64,000 nucleotides of DNA from Brachypterus glaber (Eukaryota > Arthropoda > Insecta > Coleoptera > Kateretidae): NCBI GenBank assembly GCA_958510825.1, contig OY294044.1, positions 87,466,895-87,530,894 on the forward strand, in the 5' to 3' direction. This document shows, piece by piece, positions 420 to 47,596 of the stretch. The notes beneath the pieces were generated by a model, which saw only the letters and a program-made list of their open reading frames with translations, did not search any database and was not told where the DNA came from. Both the position numbers and the translations under genes were made by a program. How positions within the stretch are numbered: position 1 is the first letter of the stretch; every line of letters begins with the position of its first letter.

Positions 420-1308
420 GGGAGCTTCAATGCCTACATTGACGACCTTCATACTCTCCTGGCTAAAGCCCCTGCTGGATGCTTTCTTGGTGGCCTAAAA
501 GTCAACTGCATCAGCTACGCCGATGATATGGTCCTTCTTTGCCCCTCACTTCAAGGTCTACGTATGCTTATAAAAATATGTGAAGACTTTGCCAAATCAC
601 GTTCTCTTAAATACAATAGTAATAAGAGTAAAGTTTTAGTGTTCAAGTCCACAAATTATAGAGACCTCTGTGTTCCTCCTGTTTATTTAAATAACTCTGC
701 TGTTGAACGCGTGTTCGAAATCAAATACCTAGGTCACGTTATCAATGATATGCTAAGTGACAACTCTGACATTCAGCGTCACAAGAAAAACCTTTGTGCC
801 CGCGCAAACATGTTAGCTAGAAAATTCTCTAAGTGCTCTGTCGAGGTTAAGAACTCTCTTTTCAGGACATTTTGTTCTAACGCTTACTGTAGTGAAATTT
901 GGCTTGATCATACGGTGGCCTCGTGGCGAACTCTTCGCGTATGCTATAATGATGCATATCGCATTATCCATAGACTACCGCGCTATAGTAGTGCCTCGGA
1001 AATGTTTGCCTCTGCCCGAATTGATACCCTGGATGCTCTGAGACGCAAGTTGCTCGCCTCTTTTGTGAAGCGGCTACTCTCCAGTCCTAATGTTTTCCTA
1101 AAAGCGTTTGTATCTTCGGACTGCTTTTGGGTTTCTGCACAAATCGCCACTTGGCGACGCCTTTGTTTCTTACAAGTGACCTAATCATTTTATTTATTTA
1201 TAAATTATAATTATTTTGTTTTGCTTTATTTTTATTTTTAATCATTTTATTATTTTGTAGTATATGGCCATTGTGCTGTAATAAAATTATTATTAAATTA
1301 TTATTATA
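420..1308 (+). mobile_element. 5'-truncated LINE: reverse transcriptase C-terminal half
   Basis: An open frame from about 423 to the TAA at 1182-1184 reads like the palm and thumb of a non-LTR retrotransposon reverse transcriptase. It starts in FNAYIDDLHTLL, passes the catalytic YADD box (near 516-527), then NSNKSKVLVF and KYLGHVI, and continues into the thumb region. This enzyme copies its own RNA into DNA at a nicked target. Only the C-terminal half is left. The endonuclease and the finger motifs are missing, with a stop just upstream, which fits the usual 5' truncation. The 3' side is AT-rich and ends in an ATTATTATT-type tail near 1300. The coding part is more GC-rich than its surroundings. 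The clade (CR1/Jockey group) is a guess from motif style. No target duplication was found. Confidence 0.85.
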
Positions 1309-4781: not shown

Positions 4782-5325
4782 TTTTTTTAGTTTTATTACA
4801 GAGAGATTTTTTTGTGGAAGTTTTTGTATGAGTTGGAAAAATATTTTTTCTTCAGCCCATTCCTGACTGGTGAGATGTTAAAGTCCGCGAAAATGGTGGA
4901 TATAACCTAAAAAAATACTCGCTTCATTGACCGAACCTAATATATAGAGCGGTCCAAAAGTCACCCCCCTCCTTCCTATATTAACTTTTGAACAAGTTGA
5001 GATATCGACTTCAAATTTGGAACACTTAAATAAGAAAACCCAAACTATCTTTTTGTATATATTTGATATTTTCAGCTGTTAAAATGAGGGCAGGGGGCAT
5101 GGTGAGGGGGATTTTTTGAATGGAAACATTTTTTTTTGGGGTTTAAAATAGGATTGAAAATGGTTATTTCCGTTTAAATTTCTTTAAAAAAATCAAACAA
5201 TTTTTGAAAAATAATTGTTTTATGTTGCAAAAACGTAAATATAATCTTAACTAATTTTAGTCGATATAAATAAAAATTAAAAAAAAAACTTAAGAAGTCG
5301 AATTTTATTATTCCATCAATCTATT
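4782..5325. other. Repeat-derived DNA, no gene
   Basis: Begins with AT-rich DNA. From about 4,943 it holds a diverged copy of the GCGGTCCAAAAGTCACCCCC end found at 6113, followed by words also present near 6,300 and 24,300 (GAGATATCGACTTCAAAT, TATTTGATATTTTCAG). Confidence 0.5.
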
Positions 5326-5349
5326 TTCTAATCATCGTACAGAGTGATA

Positions 5350-5394
5350 TTGGTAGACTGACAGTTTCGGGCTGCTGGCCCTCTTCAGTACCAA
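5350..5394 (-). ncRNA. Hammerhead ribozyme, type I, copy 1
   Basis: Read 5'->3' on the minus strand the 45 bases fit the hammerhead core exactly. Stem I is UUGGUA pairing UACCAA (6 bp, no mismatch). The core is CUGAAGA. Stem II is GGGC / GCCC with loop CAGCA. Then comes GAA, and stem III ACU / AGU with loop GUC. Cleavage is predicted after C, between 5356 and 5355. All invariant positions of CUGANGA...GAA...UH are present. The very short stem III is typical of metazoan retroelement hammerheads, which often act as dimers. It would cut multimeric transcripts into 307-nt units. Confidence 0.9.
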
Positions 5395-5656
5395 GAGTCA
5401 ACTCTGCACGCTGATTAAGAAAACTTTTTAGGCTTTATTCGCAAACGGAATATAATCATTAGATTGATGTAGACTTATGCGCCATCTATTGCTAAATGTA
5501 GACAACTACTCATACCTCTCCTAGTCTGGAGACTTTGAATGGTAGCAAGTTAAAGACGTGTGTGCACATAGTACCACTAACGTGTGGTGAGACGTAGAAT
5601 TAGTAAGGACAGAAATTAAAAAAAAAAATTTTTTCTAATCATTGTACAGAGTGATA

Positions 5657-5701
5657 TTGGTAGACTGACAGTTTCGGGCTGTTGGCCCTCCTCAGTATCA
5701 A
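5657..5701 (-). ncRNA. Hammerhead ribozyme, type I, copy 2
   Basis: Same fold as copy 1, with core CUGAGGA, stem II GGGC / GCCC with loop CAACA, and stem III ACU / AGU. Stem I is UUGAUA against UACCAA, with one A-C mismatch. Predicted cleavage lies between 5663 and 5662, so cutting at both sites would release 5356-5662, a 307-nt RNA. Substitutions relative to copy 1 sit at the variable N7 position, in the loop and in one stem I pair. Confidence 0.87.
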
Positions 5702-5729
5702 GAGTCAACTCTGCACGCTGATTTTAGAA

Positions 5730-6112
5730 TTATTTAATTAACTTGTTAGGGTAGATAAACATGTGTACCAAATTTCAGCTCTCTAAGTTTATTTCAAGTG
5801 GGTGAAAAAGCATTTGGCAAAGAGGACAAATATACCTGTATGGAAGTGAAGTAATAGAAGGGTAAAAAAAACGTTAAAATACATTTTAAATATTGTTTTG
5901 AAAAAAGTTACAGAAATTCGAATACGGGATTCCTATAAGTGTATAAATTGGGATTTTTAGCGGTCAGCCACGTAGGCAAGTATTTTTATTTTGTAAAAAA
6001 CACATTTTTGCGTTCATTAAAACCTAGGTCATATTAACACGGGCTCACTCCCTCCAATTCTTGCGGACTGATTCTGCAATCACTTAAGTAGAGATCCTAT
6101 ATATATATATAT
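5730..6112. other. AT-rich DNA, no gene seen
   Basis: Nothing coding is visible. It ends in a short (TA)n run at about 6099-6115. Confidence 0.4.
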
Positions 6113-6240
6113 ATACAGTGCGGTCCAAAAGTCACCCCCCCCCCTTTTAGCTTTTGAACAAGTTGAGATATCGACTTCAAATTTAGAACTGGTTCAAAAG
6201 TTAAGAGGGGTGGGGGGGGTGACTTTTGGACCGCTCTGTA
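6113..6240. mobile_element. Short foldback MITE, CAGTGCGGTCCAAAAGTCACC ends
   Basis: Left arm GCGGTCCAAAAGTCACCCCC and right arm GGGGGTGACTTTTGGACCGC are inverted copies, closed by TACAG...CTGTA. It is 128 bp and non-coding. A relative starts near 4,943. Confidence 0.8.
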
Positions 6241-6473
6241 TCGTATGTACTAATGTGTTAAAATTATGTATCACACAGCACCCCTTTCTTTTTAAAATAT
6301 ATCCACTCATGCCCCCTTGCCTACATTTTAAGATCTGAAAATATCAAATATACGCGAAAAGATAGTTTCAGTTGTCTTATTAAAGGATTCCAAATTTAAA
6401 TCCAGATGTGGATCTCGGATCTCATTTTTTTTTTCTTGCTTTATAATATTTAGTTTCGAAAAAAATCTGTGTA

Positions 6474-23880: not shown

Positions 23881-24296
23881 TTTGGTTTCGCTTACCTGCA
23901 CCAGTAATACTTTATTCCAATATTATTAATGGAACATTTTAAATCTTATAAATCAATCAATAAAAAATAAATTTGTATTAGAAATTAATTTTATTTGTTG
24001 TAAAAATATTATTTTAATCTCATAAATGCATTCATCAAAATTTTAATAAACTATTTAGTATGTGAAGTAAATTTTATCTGTGCAGTGGGATTTTTTTTTT
24101 AATTTACACTAGAAATCGGGTAAAAAAATACAAAAATATAGTAAATATTTTAATCACAAAACAAAATTTACAAAAAATATATATAAAATTAAATCAATAA
24201 TAATGAAAGTTGTAATAACAATTGAGATAATTTGAAAAAATAAATAGTAGGTACATTATAATAATTATTAACAATTCCCCTCTTAATTGTTGATTG

Positions 24297-24715
24297 AGTT
24301 GAGATATTTACTTAAAATCAGTAACAGTTAAATAAGACAACTAAAACCATCTTTTGGCATATATTCGATATTTTTAGCTTAAAAAATGTGGACATGGGGG
24401 GCATAGTTGGAATTTTTTTTAAATAGAAAGGGGGGTCATGTAAGACATCCATTTAAAGCTTATAAAATTTTCTATTTGACCACGATTTTTTTTATTTCTT
24501 TAAATTAAAAAAATCCCCCCTGTGCCCCCTGTCCACATTTTTTTAACTACCCTATTGAAAATGACGGGTCTGGGCGGGTATAAATGGTGCATACCCGTCA
24601 TTTTCAACAGGGTAAAAATATCGAATATATGCCAAAAGATGGCTTAAGTTTTCTTATTGGTGTGTTCCAAATTTTAAGCCGATATCTCAACTCATTCAAA
24701 AGTTACGAGGTATAA
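24297..24715. mobile_element. Foldback element with inner GGGTATAAATGGTG palindrome
   Basis: GAGTTGAGATATTTACTTAA, ACCATCTTTTGGCATATATT, CGATATTTTTAGC is mirrored by the TATCGAATATATGCCAAAAG, CGATATCTCAACTC side. Inside it, TACCCTATTGAAAATGACGG / CCGTCATTTTCAACAGGGTA forms a second hairpin (24,549-24,613). The outer words recur near 4,990-5,080 and 6,330-6,400. Confidence 0.75.
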
Positions 24716-25662: not shown

Positions 25663-26022
25663 AGCTAGAAACTTGAAATTTGGCATGTACATGAAGTATC
25701 CCCCACGCTCCCAGGAAAAATCCGAAAATTGACCACCGACCCCCCCTAACCCCCCCATTTATTAAAAACACTTCTAAAATAGCTAGAAACTTGAAATTTG
25801 GCATGTACATGTAGTATCCCCCCACGCTCCCAGGAAAAATCCGAAAATTGACCACTGACCCCCCCTAACCCCCCCCCCATTTATTAAAAACACTTCTAAA
25901 ATAGCTAGAAACTTGAAATTTGGCATGTACATGGAGTATCCACCCACGCTCCCAGGAAAAATCCGAAAATTGACCAAGGACCCCCCTAAACCCCCATTAA
26001 TTAAAAATAGCTCATACCTATT
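25663..26022. repeat. ~120-bp tandem repeat, three copies
   Basis: Units start with GCTAGAAACTTGAAATTTGG at 25663, 25782 and 25904. They run through CATGTACATG, AGTATCC, CCCACGCTCCCAGGAAAAAT, CCGAAAATTGACCA and a C-run, ending TTTATTAAAAAC. They sit inside the last intron of the transposase. The two minus-strand ORFs over them are repeat translations fused to exon sequence. Confidence 0.9.
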
Positions 26023-26045
26023 CCTATCTATGACTTCACACTTAC

Positions 26046-26200
26046 CATCTCTTCCAATATGTCTATTATAGTAAGTTTTGGTGATGCCCCACACCATCTC
26101 AATGGGATTAAACATGCAATGGTATGGAGGTAATCTTAATATAGTATGACCATATTCTTCAGCTAGTTGGTCCACCTTGTAAATTCTTGGGGGTTTATTT
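26046..26200 (-). pseudogene. Split transposase, DDE C-terminal exon with third catalytic acid
   Basis: Minus-strand exon bounded by acceptor TTTTTAG (26201-26207) and donor GTAAGT (26040-26045). It encodes NKPPRIYKVDQLAEEYGH, then TILRLPPYHCMFNPIEMVWG and ITKTYYNRHIGRD. The NPIE motif with its glutamate is the third catalytic acid of Tc1/mariner and IS630-type DDE transposases, which cut and paste DNA at TA sites. The exon needs two bases from an upstream exon, but the exon at 26827-27010 supplies one. At least one exon is therefore missing between them. Confidence 0.85.
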
Positions 26201-26270
26201 CTAAAAATTATAACAATATAATATTTGTTGCTTGTTTAGCCTGGTTTCTGGCAATCTGCCATGCCTAGAG

Positions 26271-30678: not shown

Positions 30679-31466
30679 ACACTCATATGTTTATATATTT
30701 TCATTTCATTTCATTTATTATTCGTAATACTACTACTTTCCAGCCTAAGCTTGGGGAGCCTAATGTTGTTTGACCTTGTATTTTTTACATGAATATTTGG
30801 TTGCAGAGGGTACATATTTATGTTTTGTTTAACATATAAAATGGATATATAAAGACATGGAACGGTCATAATATTTAATTCAATAAATTTATGTTGTACC
30901 CCATCTTGATACCCTAAACTCGTCATAATGCGAAGCACTTTCCTCTGCAAAGCAAATATTCTTTCTGTGCCAGATGCATGATCCCAAACTATCAGACCAT
31001 ACCTAATTTTAGAAGGGGCATAATAAGCGGTTTTTAGTACATTAAAGGAAACCATTCTAACCAAGTTTCTGAATATGAAAACAGATTTAGACAGAGAATT
31101 TGAGAGTTGGTTGGTATGTTGTTTCCAGTTTAAATTTTGGTCCAATAGTAGACCCAAATACTTGACCTTGTGAGGATTGGTAAAATTATGTAGAGGTCTG
31201 TGTGTAAAAAATATGTCGACAGTTTTGCTTTTGTTTAACGAAAGCTTATTTGCCGAGAACCACTCCTGAATATTTGACTGGCCCCCATCCATGAGCTGTT
31301 TAGTGTCTAAAAGGTCGACATTACTAGAAATTATATTTGAATCGTCAGCAAATAGAAAATTTTCCCAAATAAGAAGGGCATTTTTTAAATCGTTTATAAA
31401 AATCAGGAACAAAAGCGGACCAAGCACCGAGCCTTGCGACACGCTACACTCATATGTTTATATATT
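30679..31466. repeat. 21-bp target-site duplication flanking a LINE
   Basis: A perfect 21-base word beginning ACACTCATATG and ending TATATATT occurs at 30679-30699 and 31446-31466, immediately next to the two ends of the LINE fragment. Confidence 0.95.
30700..31445 (-). mobile_element. 5'-truncated LINE: reverse transcriptase C-terminal part
   Basis: The minus-strand frame from 31442 to 30711 encodes 243 residues: QGSVLGPLLFLIFINDL (motif 4), FADD catalytic box, NKLSLNKSKT, KVKYLGLLLDQNLNWKQH, and the thumb-side helices. It stops 11 bp before the 3' end, which carries (GAAAT)n. It lacks the endonuclease and early polymerase motifs because the insertion is 5'-truncated at 31445. The frame is uninterrupted and the flanking duplication is perfect, so the insertion is young. 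It is a different lineage from the LINE at 420-1308. A Jockey/CR1-group enzyme is likely from motif style. Confidence 0.93.
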
Positions 31467-45815: not shown

Positions 45816-46031
45816 TTTTGACTTTTCGGCTAAGATTTCAATACATCGGCACTCTTAGTAGCACTAAGTTCCGATGTAAAAGGATAAAGCACTGTGACCA
45901 TGATCAAAGCTTGCATCTTTGATTTTTGTTTTTAACCAAAGTTTCTCATTAATAAGACAATATATTGTCTGACATATCATAAATTAAATCTTGATTGGAA
46001 ACATGTTTTGATACATATATATTTTTTTCAG

Positions 46032-46071
46032 GTGGATTTCTGCTCAAAAACCAACAAAACAGAATTTATTA
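46032..46071 (+). other. EPB41L4A: 5' untranslated part of the FERM exon
   Basis: Forty bases lie between the splice acceptor (TTTTTTTCAG, ending 46031) and the chosen ATG. The frame is open here, so coding through from an earlier exon cannot be excluded, but the MLDCFC start resembles the known N-terminus of the family. Confidence 0.6.
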
Positions 46072-47005
46072 ATGATGTTGGACTGTTTCTGTTCCAAAGC
46101 AATCCCAGTCCATTGCAAGATTGTATTTCTAGACGAAACCGAATTGGTACATGAAGTCCAAAATAACACTCCAGGGCAAACTCTATTGGACTTAGTTTTC
46201 AGACATTTAAACCTTCTAGAAACAGCATATTTTGGACTGAGATATTTGGATTTAAACGGACAAACCCATTGGTTGGACCCGACTAAGAAACTCAACAAGC
46301 AAATTAAAGGTCCTGATCCTTACACCTTATATTTTGGAGTAAAGTTCTACGCAGCAGATCCATGTAAACTGTTAGAAGAAATAACGAGATACCAGTTTTT
46401 TCTGCAGATTAAGCAGGATATTTTGCAAGGAAGATTACTGGTTCCATTTGAGTTATCTTCTGAGCTAGGAGCTTATATTCTTCAGTCGGAGTTAGGAGAT
46501 TATGATCCCAGGCGGCACAGTCCGGGTTATGTTTCTGAGTTTAGGTTTTTGCCCAATCAGAGTGTCGAGCTAGAGATGCGCATCGCTGAGCTACATCAGA
46601 CTTTGGTCGGTCAGTTACCTTCCACAGCAGAACTCAACTATCTGGACAAAGTGAAATGGCTGGAAAACTACGGAGTGGATTTACATCCAGTTTTAGGGGA
46701 AGACCACGTGGAATACTTCCTGGGGCTAACACCAAGTGGGATAATAGTGCTCAGAAATAAAAACACGGTCGGGAACTACTATTGGCCGAGAATAACCAAA
46801 ATTTACTTCAAAGGGCGGTATTTTATGTTAAGGGTGACGGATAAAAACAATGACGAGTGTACTTACGGGTTTGAGACTCCCTCGAAGTCCGCGTGCAAAC
46901 ATTTATGGAAGTGTTGTTTGGAACATCACGCGTTTTTCCGGCTGGTTCAAGTTACCCCAACGGCCCCTGATATTTTTGCTCTTGGATCTAGATTCAGATA
47001 TAGTG
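46072..47005 (+). CDS. EPB41L4A: FERM-domain exon of a band 4.1-like protein 4 (NBL4-type) gene
   Basis: This exon encodes 311 residues plus one base and contains nearly a complete FERM domain: F1 about residues 12-92 (FGLRYLD, HWLDPTKK), F2 about 97-195 (DPCKLLEEITRYQFFLQIKQ, ELGDYDPRRHSPGYVSEF) and F3 about 200-295 (YFLGLTPSGIIVL, WPRITKIYF, ACKHLWKCCLEHHAFFRL). It ends in SRFRYSG, which marks the FERM-adjacent region. FERM proteins link membrane proteins to the cortical cytoskeleton. GVDLHPVLGE, LGDYDP and the start MLDCFC resemble vertebrate band 4.1-like protein 4A more than the Yurt/EPB41L5 or FRMD3/5 groups, by memory and not by search. A polypyrimidine tract and CAG (46031) precede the exon. 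ATG at 46072 is the likely start (46075 possible). The donor is G|GTAAGT at 47006, phase 1. No later exons were recognised, so they lie beyond long introns or outside the window. Confidence 0.92.
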
Positions 47006-47596
47006 GTAAGTCTCTTTTATTTATATATTTTTCTTTGAAGGATTACAACTACTTGTAAAAATAAAATCTTGGTTTAAGAAAAACCGTTTTGTTTTTTAGG
47101 TATAATACTATTTCCTAAATAAAAGTACATAGCTTTGATAAAAAAATAAATAAATAGAAAAATCGTAACTAGAAAGGATATCAATATTTTTTAAGGACAT
47201 TTTTTATGTTTTACTGAGAAAACAAAATTGGTATTTTAGCAAGGCGGTCTTAGTAAAACAAGCCTTGATTTGAACAATTATTGGTAATGATTCATAACGT
47301 TAAACTTATACGTTCGACTTTTTATTAATTCTTAAAAAATATTTTTTTCTTCAAGCGTACTAAAAGTAAATGTTCATATTTTATAACTGAATACACTAGT
47401 TAGAAGTGATCTATTTTTTTACAGTAAAAAAATGAGTTCATTGTTGTACGCCGTAACAAAAGTTAGTTAGCAAAACCACCCCTGGCGGCAGCACTCTTTG
47501 ACTTTGATGACAGTCATACTTCAAACTTGTTTGTTTATGTAAACAGGTGGTTGAATCGAGATTCTGTGCAAAAGCCTTGTGTGAAATTGATTAAAA
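47006..47596. other. Intron start of the FERM gene, no exon seen
   Basis: Begins GTAAGTCTC. Nothing resembling the next FERM-adjacent exon was found in this interval. Confidence 0.5.

What the first reader, a model, noticed from the sequence alone, without database searches (positions are those of the whole stretch)
5350..5701. Two direct-repeat hammerhead ribozymes 307 bp apart
Both copies satisfy every invariant position of the hammerhead core on the minus strand (CUGANGA, stem II GGGC/GCCC, GAA, A15.1-U16.1, C17). Stem I of copy 1 is a perfect 6-bp match and copy 2 has one mismatch. Cutting at both sites would release a 307-nt RNA (5356-5662) that could circularise. No reverse transcriptase is nearby, so this looks like a retrozyme-type parasite or a solo pair of Penelope terminal repeats.
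Basis: partly seen in the sequence, partly recalled or inferred. Interest (0 to 1): 0.88.

Follow-up and report, generated by a model that had tools for sequence, protein, structure and literature searches.

The report
Self-cutting RNA hitchhiker in insect genome
The window holds one damaged copy of a small insect jumping element made of self-cutting RNA units, and the ends of its sister copies look like those made by the cell's Penelope retrotransposons, which suggests who moves it.

Summary
Two type I hammerhead ribozyme motifs lie in direct repeat on the minus strand, 307 bp apart, predicted to release RNA 5662-5356. Rfam misses them. The host is an insect, probably a beetle (inferred). The pair is one 5'-truncated copy (5304-5723) of a dispersed tandem family with 316-, 354- and 375-bp units: a metazoan non-LTR retrozyme, not a solo Penelope terminal repeat.

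The new part is how copies end. Insertions stop at one of two sites after the cleavage point: A (median +54) or B (+99). Of 24 independent insertions with an inverted arm, 21 have one outer end at A and the other at B, three have one outer end elsewhere, none is A/A or B/B. Penelope-like elements (PLEs) with hammerheads in the same genome also have two end sites; the 5 two-armed copies read, and a sixth by coordinates, are A+B. A published PLE starts reverse transcription at two internal sites and primes on both strands (PMC11167929). I infer that PLE enzymes insert this retrozyme, in print a candidate only (PMC7229834). Cleavage, circles and PLE dependence were not tested at the bench.

The parts
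5304..5723 (-). whole retrozyme copy: 5'-truncated unit (unit positions 294-354), one 307-bp unit, then a 52-nt stub ending at site A
   Evidence: alignment to a genomic 354-bp unit
5631..5723 (-). upstream type I hammerhead with extended stem I; one mismatch in inner stem I (UUGAUA/UACCAA)
5663..5695 (-). catalytic span CUGAGGA to C17 of the upstream copy; predicted cleavage between 5663 and 5662
5324..5416 (-). downstream type I hammerhead, inner stem I perfect (UUGGUA/UACCAA)
5356..5388 (-). catalytic span CUGAAGA to C17 of the downstream copy; predicted cleavage between 5356 and 5355
5356..5662 (-). 307-nt predicted excised RNA; lacks most of unit positions 33-84 that 354-bp copies have, including site A
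5604..5612 (-). site B motif CTGTCCTTA inside the unit (unit positions 90-98)
   Evidence: sequence; site mapped on other copies
5304..5314 (-). site A motif GGAATAATAAA, where this copy ends and flanking DNA begins

Best explanation
A non-autonomous retrozyme. Steps: (1) a tandem copy is transcribed; (2) the hammerheads cut the RNA into about 307-375-nt units, some of which are joined into monomer or dimer circles; (3) an endonuclease-bearing Penelope-like element of the same genome binds the RNA, cuts both strands of an AT-rich target, and primes reverse transcription inside the RNA at two sites, A on one strand and B on the other; (4) the two cDNAs, each running once or several times round or along the template, are joined head to head and leave a target duplication; single-armed copies arise when only one cDNA survives. 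Shown here: the motif, the family, the two end sites, the A+B pairing, shared flank strings, and the same pattern in co-resident PLEs. Inferred: cutting, circles, and the PLE enzyme as the agent.
For: Motif not expected by chance. Own-genome DNA search: 85 matches in 38 places counting the window, 40 of 1526 candidates scored. 39 rows from 37 fetched loci (one with two duplicate copies) plus window: 11 A/B and 11 B/A (21 independent), 0 A/A, 0 B/B; direct-arm 3' ends are A in 21 and B in 18 of 39. Flank strings shared by both sides: 27 of 39 rows with 7 bp or more against 16% of mismatched pairs, 18 of 39 with 9 or more against 2.6%; among the 21 two-armed A+B loci 20 reach 7. Inner ends of the two arms lie more than 10 nt apart in 19 of 21, against a fold-back hairpin. 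Arms of one locus share rare variants (10 in 3247 bp, in 6 of 21 loci) more than arms of different loci (14 in 65279 bp). Flanks AT-rich, GC 0.25 against 0.30 farther out, n=37. PLEs with RT and GIY-YIG present; their ends at about +66 to +72 and +96 to +103; 5 of 5 two-armed copies read are A+B, a sixth by coordinates. 13 of 58 cDNA 5' ends lie in +1 to +20, the richest 20-nt window of the unit, 4 of them at +1. Array L037: nine units alternate a-b with 0 differences at lag 2. Published PLE: two internal RT starts, both strands extended, tail (PMC11167929, parts 1-3 of 4 read).
Against: No clear likeness between retrozyme and PLE around sites A and B, so no particular PLE family is matched. 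Three of 24 loci with an inverted piece have that outer end elsewhere (unit positions 189, 203, 86: L041, L049, L065). Only 6 of 14 one-armed rows, and not the window copy, have a shared flank string of 7 bp. The hammerhead is below Rfam's threshold, the minimum-energy fold is not the catalytic one, and the 56 distinct equal-length copies show no two-sided change that keeps a pair. 15 of 21 two-armed loci share no rare variant between arms, and arm-arm distances are not clearly below those between loci. No RNA data. The a-b alternation can come from later unequal crossing-over. In the published PLE assay start sites did not differ between strands, and hammerhead mutants did not affect insertion (PMC11167929).
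Confidence: 0.82

Rival explanations
1. Retrozyme mobilised by another non-LTR element (LINE) by ordinary target-primed reverse transcription, the inverted arms being twin priming.
For: RVT_1 fragments occur in the window; 5' truncation and target duplications are shared with LINEs (recalled).
Against: LINE twin priming leaves one 3' end and an internal inversion (recalled), whereas here both outer ends are 3' start sites of two fixed kinds in 21 of 24 loci with an inverted piece. I see no poly(A) tail at the 3' junctions listed.
Confidence: 0.08
2. Satellite DNA: the arrays grow by unequal crossing-over and the hammerhead is a relic without a part in mobility.
For: Arrays up to 14 units (L032); near-identical units; period-2 arrays in 3 of 7 arrays examined.
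Against: Dispersed insertions with fixed 3' ends, 5' truncation and shared flank strings; cDNA 5' ends cluster at the cleavage point.
Confidence: 0.05
3. The inverted arms come from self-priming (fold-back) of one cDNA, as proposed for Penelope head-to-head repeats in PMC3846280, and not from two primed strands.
For: Proposed in print for PLEs (discussion section read); 2 of 21 junctions are within 10 nt (L045, L064).
Against: 19 of 21 junctions join unit positions more than 10 nt apart, and in these 21 the two outer ends are two different start sites.
Confidence: 0.07

Closest known systems
Metazoan non-LTR retrozymes (Cervera and de la Pena 2020, PMC7229834; parts 1-4 of 6 read)
   Same: type I hammerhead in about 150-450-bp tandem repeats, low GC (307-bp unit 0.381, one 354-bp unit 0.35), no long ORF, dispersed dimers to multimers, TSD longer than 4 bp
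   Different: the parts read do not describe two fixed 3' end sites, inverted arms or the A+B rule; circRNA not tested here
Penelope-like elements, Penelope/Poseidon type (PMC11167929 parts 1-3 of 4; PMC3846280 passages and discussion)
   Same: direct plus inverted terminal arms, 8-10-bp TSD, optional 31-bp tail on one inverted arm, two internal RT start sites, AT-rich targets, a hammerhead upstream of the ends
   Different: PLEs encode RT and GIY-YIG and carry minimal hammerheads; the window element has no long frame and a long stem I with an internal loop
Plant LTR retrozymes (PMC7761336 passages; PMC7229834)
   Same: hammerhead pair that can release a circularisable RNA
   Different: type III hammerhead, LTRs with PBS and PPT, 4-bp TSD, Gypsy as suggested helper

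Membership tests
Metazoan non-LTR retrozyme | type I hammerhead with intact catalytic core | tested here: met
   descriptor scan; one stem I mismatch in the upstream copy; sequence motif only, activity not tested
Metazoan non-LTR retrozyme | tandem repeats of 150-450 bp, many copies | tested here: met
   316-, 354-, 375-bp units in arrays, 38 places
Metazoan non-LTR retrozyme | low GC (below 45-50%) | tested here: met
   0.381 for the 307-bp unit, 0.35 for one 354-bp unit
Metazoan non-LTR retrozyme | no coding capacity | tested here: met
   no stop-to-stop frame of 150 aa or more overlaps 5304-5723; shorter frames not examined
Metazoan non-LTR retrozyme | target duplication longer than 4 bp | tested here: met
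   family level: 18 of 39 rows with a shared flank string of 9 bp or more against 2.6% in mismatched pairs; the window copy itself is at chance level
Metazoan non-LTR retrozyme | loop 1 - loop 2 tertiary contact | tested here: inconclusive
   internal loop UGACUC/UAUC and loop CAGCA or CAACA present by reading; contact not modelled
Metazoan non-LTR retrozyme | expressed as circular RNA | not testable with these tools
   no RNA data
Metazoan non-LTR retrozyme | lacks LTR, PBS and PPT | not tested
   no tRNA-complement or polypurine search was made
Rfam RF00163 Hammerhead_1 | score above gathering threshold | tested here: not met
   no match at gathering nor at E<=5 in 5250-5850
Penelope-like element | RT plus GIY-YIG ORF | tested here: not met
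   no frame of 150 aa in the element; PLE protein of L079 has no match in the window at E<=0.01
Penelope-like element | insertion signature: two 3' start sites, inverted arm with tail, TSD | tested here: met
   family level: 21 of 24 independent insertions with an inverted piece are A+B; the window copy has one arm only. Supports works-like, not membership
Plant LTR retrozyme | type III hammerhead | tested here: not met
   the open helix is stem I

The most novel reading that the evidence does not exclude
Animal retrozymes are parasites of Penelope-like elements. The PLE complex uses two different RNA start sites per insertion, one for each target strand, and accepts hammerhead-made RNA (cut, or circular including dimer circles) as template, so that genomic junctions record both the ribozyme cut and the two-site priming.
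Probability: 0.6. Interest if true: 0.75.

Novelty: new member of a known kind. Interest (0 to 1): 0.62.

Why it matters
What moves animal retrozymes is open: the 2020 paper and later reviews name PLEs (or LINEs) as candidates, from co-occurrence, tandem copies and shared hammerheads (PMC7229834 part 4; passages of PMC7761336 and PMC11722881). The two-site, two-strand insertion signature gives a mechanistic link that can be checked in any assembled animal genome. It may also turn a loosely described feature of PLEs (an optional tail on one of the inverted arms, PMC3846280) into a rule that constrains how PLE enzymes start. I did not find this in print in the library searched: searches, of whose listings I opened only the papers cited and PMC12910113 (passages, nothing on tails); most subscription papers are not held.

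Tried and rejected
Considered and rejected: solo PLE terminal repeats (different hammerhead); plant-type LTR retrozyme (type I, longer TSD); chance hammerheads. L072 carries a diverged match to unit positions 1-32 (84% of 32 bp) about 1 kb from a PLE fragment and on the other strand; read as an old retrozyme piece, not as that PLE's terminal repeat. Arm-arm distance against other loci was inconclusive, so I then used shared rare variants. Compensatory changes: none found, copies too alike. PF26215 as a PLE marker is not in the library. Genome-wide copy number was not obtained: a second DNA search and the core-pattern search did not complete. The cDNA 5'-end clustering was noticed after the fact and its null is an even spread; two of its four exact +1 ends (L044, L046) lie in rearranged arms. 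In three fetched 5' ends first listed at +1 or near, one search was needed to see that L034 and L057 run on past +1.

Ends were called A or B by ranges that I set after seeing the data (48-64 and 92-106). Rows dropped: L040b (segmental duplicate of L040a) where independence is stated; L033 (runs into N on one side); a side match at 1104-1185 of L032; L001 (unrelated hammerhead). L080 and L081 were fetched because one search already showed them to have two arms, and their end coordinates were visible then. C15:40248907/40249150 was judged from coordinates alone, and another B-ended match on the same strand lies 0.8 kb off.

Full report
OBSERVATION. The minus strand of the window carries two direct repeats of 93 nt, 96% alike, 307 bp apart. 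Read from the sequence, each is a type I hammerhead: stem I UUGGUA/UACCAA next to the core, an internal loop UGACUC/UAUC, an outer helix CGUGCAGAGU/ACUCUGUACG and a further UAAUCA/UGAUUA; stem II GGGC/GCCC with loop CAGCA or CAACA; GAA; stem III ACUG-U-CAGU; cleavage GUC|UACC. These are the letters of the downstream copy; the upstream copy has one mismatch in inner stem I and small differences in the outer helices. A strict descriptor finds these two in the window (the upstream one only with one stem I mismatch allowed) and none in 3.84 Mb of first-order simulated sequence. Both fold better than shuffles (z -4.98 and -3.53), but the minimum-energy fold pairs core CUGA with UCAG and is not the catalytic one. 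Rfam does not report them.

HOST. The window's assembly has 648,179,424 bases in 842 contigs. The FERM exon at 46012-47058 is 86% identical to a protein of the beetle Callosobruchus analis, the best-ranked hit that bears a species name; three unnamed ones rank above it. I take the host to be an insect, probably a beetle.

FAMILY. A DNA search of the same genome with 5324-5723 gave 85 matches in 38 places counting the window (40 of 1526 candidates scored, so a lower bound). I fetched the 37 others. They are tandem arrays or short pieces of units of 316, 354 or 375 bp. The window copy is 5304-5723: unit positions 294-354, a 307-bp unit that lacks most of positions 33-84, and a 52-nt stub. The stub holds positions 33-52, which the 307-bp unit lacks; so either the unit lost them after insertion or the template was not a plain 307-nt circle. 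Of 108 hammerheads in these loci and the window (61 distinct), 95 (50 distinct) match the core expression. Over the 56 distinct ones of equal length, 9 changes fall in 12 core positions, 76 in 56 other paired positions and 57 in 38 unpaired ones, and no pair shows a two-sided change that keeps pairing.

HOW COPIES END. With +1 as the first base after the cleavage point, outer ends fall at two places: A at 49-63 (31 ends, median 54) and B at 93-106 (28 ends, median 99). Some of the spread is chance likeness of the flank. In one search there are 39 rows: 37 loci, one of them holding two segmentally duplicated copies, and the window. The direct arm's 3' end is A in 21 and B in 18 of 39. In 22 rows, 21 independent, an inverted arm and a direct arm are joined head to head, with one outer end at A and the other at B (11 rows each way round). 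None is A/A or B/B. Three more (L041, L049, L065) have an inverted piece whose outer end is elsewhere (positions 189, 203, 86). Fourteen have one arm only (7 A, the window among them; 7 B, one of which, L033, runs into N). If the two ends chose A or B independently and evenly, 21 mixed of 21 would have a probability of 2^-21 (arithmetic).

Flank strings of 7 bp or more are shared by the two sides in 27 of 39 rows against 16% of mismatched pairs, and of 9 bp or more in 18 of 39 against 2.6% (the duplicate row is counted). Split by kind: 20 of the 21 two-armed A+B loci, 6 of 14 one-armed rows, 0 of the 3 others reach 7 bp. Examples are ACATATTTATT (L034) and TAACATAAAGGT (L064). So the two-armed structures are single insertions. 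The two arms begin at different unit positions (more than 10 nt apart in 19 of 21), which does not fit fold-back of one cDNA. They share rare variants 10 times in 3247 bp, against 14 in 65279 bp between loci, as if made from RNA of one source; but the shared ones lie in 6 of 21 loci, and plain arm-arm distances were inconclusive. Targets are AT-rich (30-bp flanks GC 0.25, farther out 0.30, n=37, Wilcoxon p 0.004). The window copy is of the one-armed kind, ends at A, and its flank strings are at chance level.

THE SAME PATTERN IN PLEs. The genome holds GIY-YIG matches (31, 150 of 419 candidates scored), and L079 has a 716-aa frame with RVT_1 and GIY-YIG. One PLE family has a minimal hammerhead CTGAAGA...GAAACGTT|GG. 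Of 13 PLE loci held (L069-L081), 7 match its terminal region; 5 of those show both arms (L076, L077, L078, L080, L081), and all 5 are A+B, with A at +66 to +72 and B at +96 to +103; L074 shows one arm, ending at A, and L073 is the source of the query. A sixth two-armed copy is seen by coordinates only (C15:40248907 and 40249150). L080 and L081 have long shared flank strings (AATATACTACTAGAATA; ATGTAATAAAT; read).

RNA INTERMEDIATE. A monomer cut by the hammerhead ends at unit position 354, so cDNA started at +54 or +99 could only reach +1. Arms that run on through that point, which include every multi-unit array, had an uncut or circular template. But the 5' ends of cDNAs cluster at the cut: 13 of 58 in +1 to +20 (binomial p 1.7e-5 against even spread; this is the richest 20-nt window of the unit), 4 at +1 exactly (two of the four in rearranged arms). 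RT running off a cut RNA explains this; a pause in the structured stem I would too. L037 has nine units that alternate a-b-a-b with 0 differences at lag 2 and 2 at lag 1; L044 and L046 show weaker period 2; the other four arrays examined (L032, L041, L043, L054) do not. A dimer circle copied several times would give this; later unequal crossing-over would too.

COMPARISON WITH THE LITERATURE. PMC7229834 (parts 1-4 of 6 read) defines metazoan non-LTR retrozymes and names PLEs as a strong candidate helper, from shared type I hammerheads, tandem copies and co-existence. PMC11167929 (parts 1-3 of 4 read) shows for the anole PLE that reverse transcription starts at two adjacent internal sites, that both strands are cut and extended, that the genomic tail corresponds to the stretch between the two sites, and that targets are AT-rich; it saw no difference of start site between strands, and hammerhead mutants still inserted. 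PMC3846280 (passages and discussion) gives the typical PLE insertion: direct terminal repeats plus an inverted one, 9-bp TSD, an optional 31-bp tail on one of the inverted repeats; it explains the inverted arm by self-priming. My result ties the retrozyme to this signature and sharpens it. I found no such statement in the searches, of whose listings I opened only a few.

VERDICT. A real copy of an animal retrozyme, a new member of a known kind, with one weakened hammerhead and an internal deletion. The general finding is the A+B insertion signature shared with resident PLEs. Which PLE family helps is not known: the A and B sequences of the retrozyme and of the PLE family seen are not clearly alike.

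Noticed in passing
window 420-1184 (+) and 30711-31457 (-): Fragments of reverse transcriptase (Pfam RVT_1), not matched by the PLE protein of this genome.
   Followed up: partly
window 25783-26235 (-): Weak DDE_3 transposase remnant (E 0.0009, under the curated cut-off).
   Followed up: no
window 46012-47058 (+): Single open exon with the three FERM domains, band 4.1-like protein 4, best named hit a beetle (86%).
   Followed up: partly
window 4935-5101, 6111-6400, 24275-24705: A dispersed repeat in direct and inverted copies on both sides of the retrozyme (GCGGTCCAAAAGTCACCCCCC in the near copies).
   Followed up: no
L001 (C10:30938340): A different type I hammerhead, 45.8 bits to RF00163, the only match reported in the genome search (73 of 69482 candidates scored); another ribozyme family in the same host.
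   Followed up: no
L037 (C2:9909400-9915500): Nine retrozyme units alternating exactly between two variants (lag-2 difference 0).
   Followed up: partly
L079 (C556:5200-9700): PLE in tandem: 716-aa RT plus GIY-YIG frame, next copy about 3 kb away with a 1.0-kb stretch at 99.4%.
   Followed up: partly
L072 positions about 315-400: Diverged sequence like retrozyme positions 1-55, near a PLE fragment on the other strand; may be an older retrozyme subfamily.
   Followed up: partly
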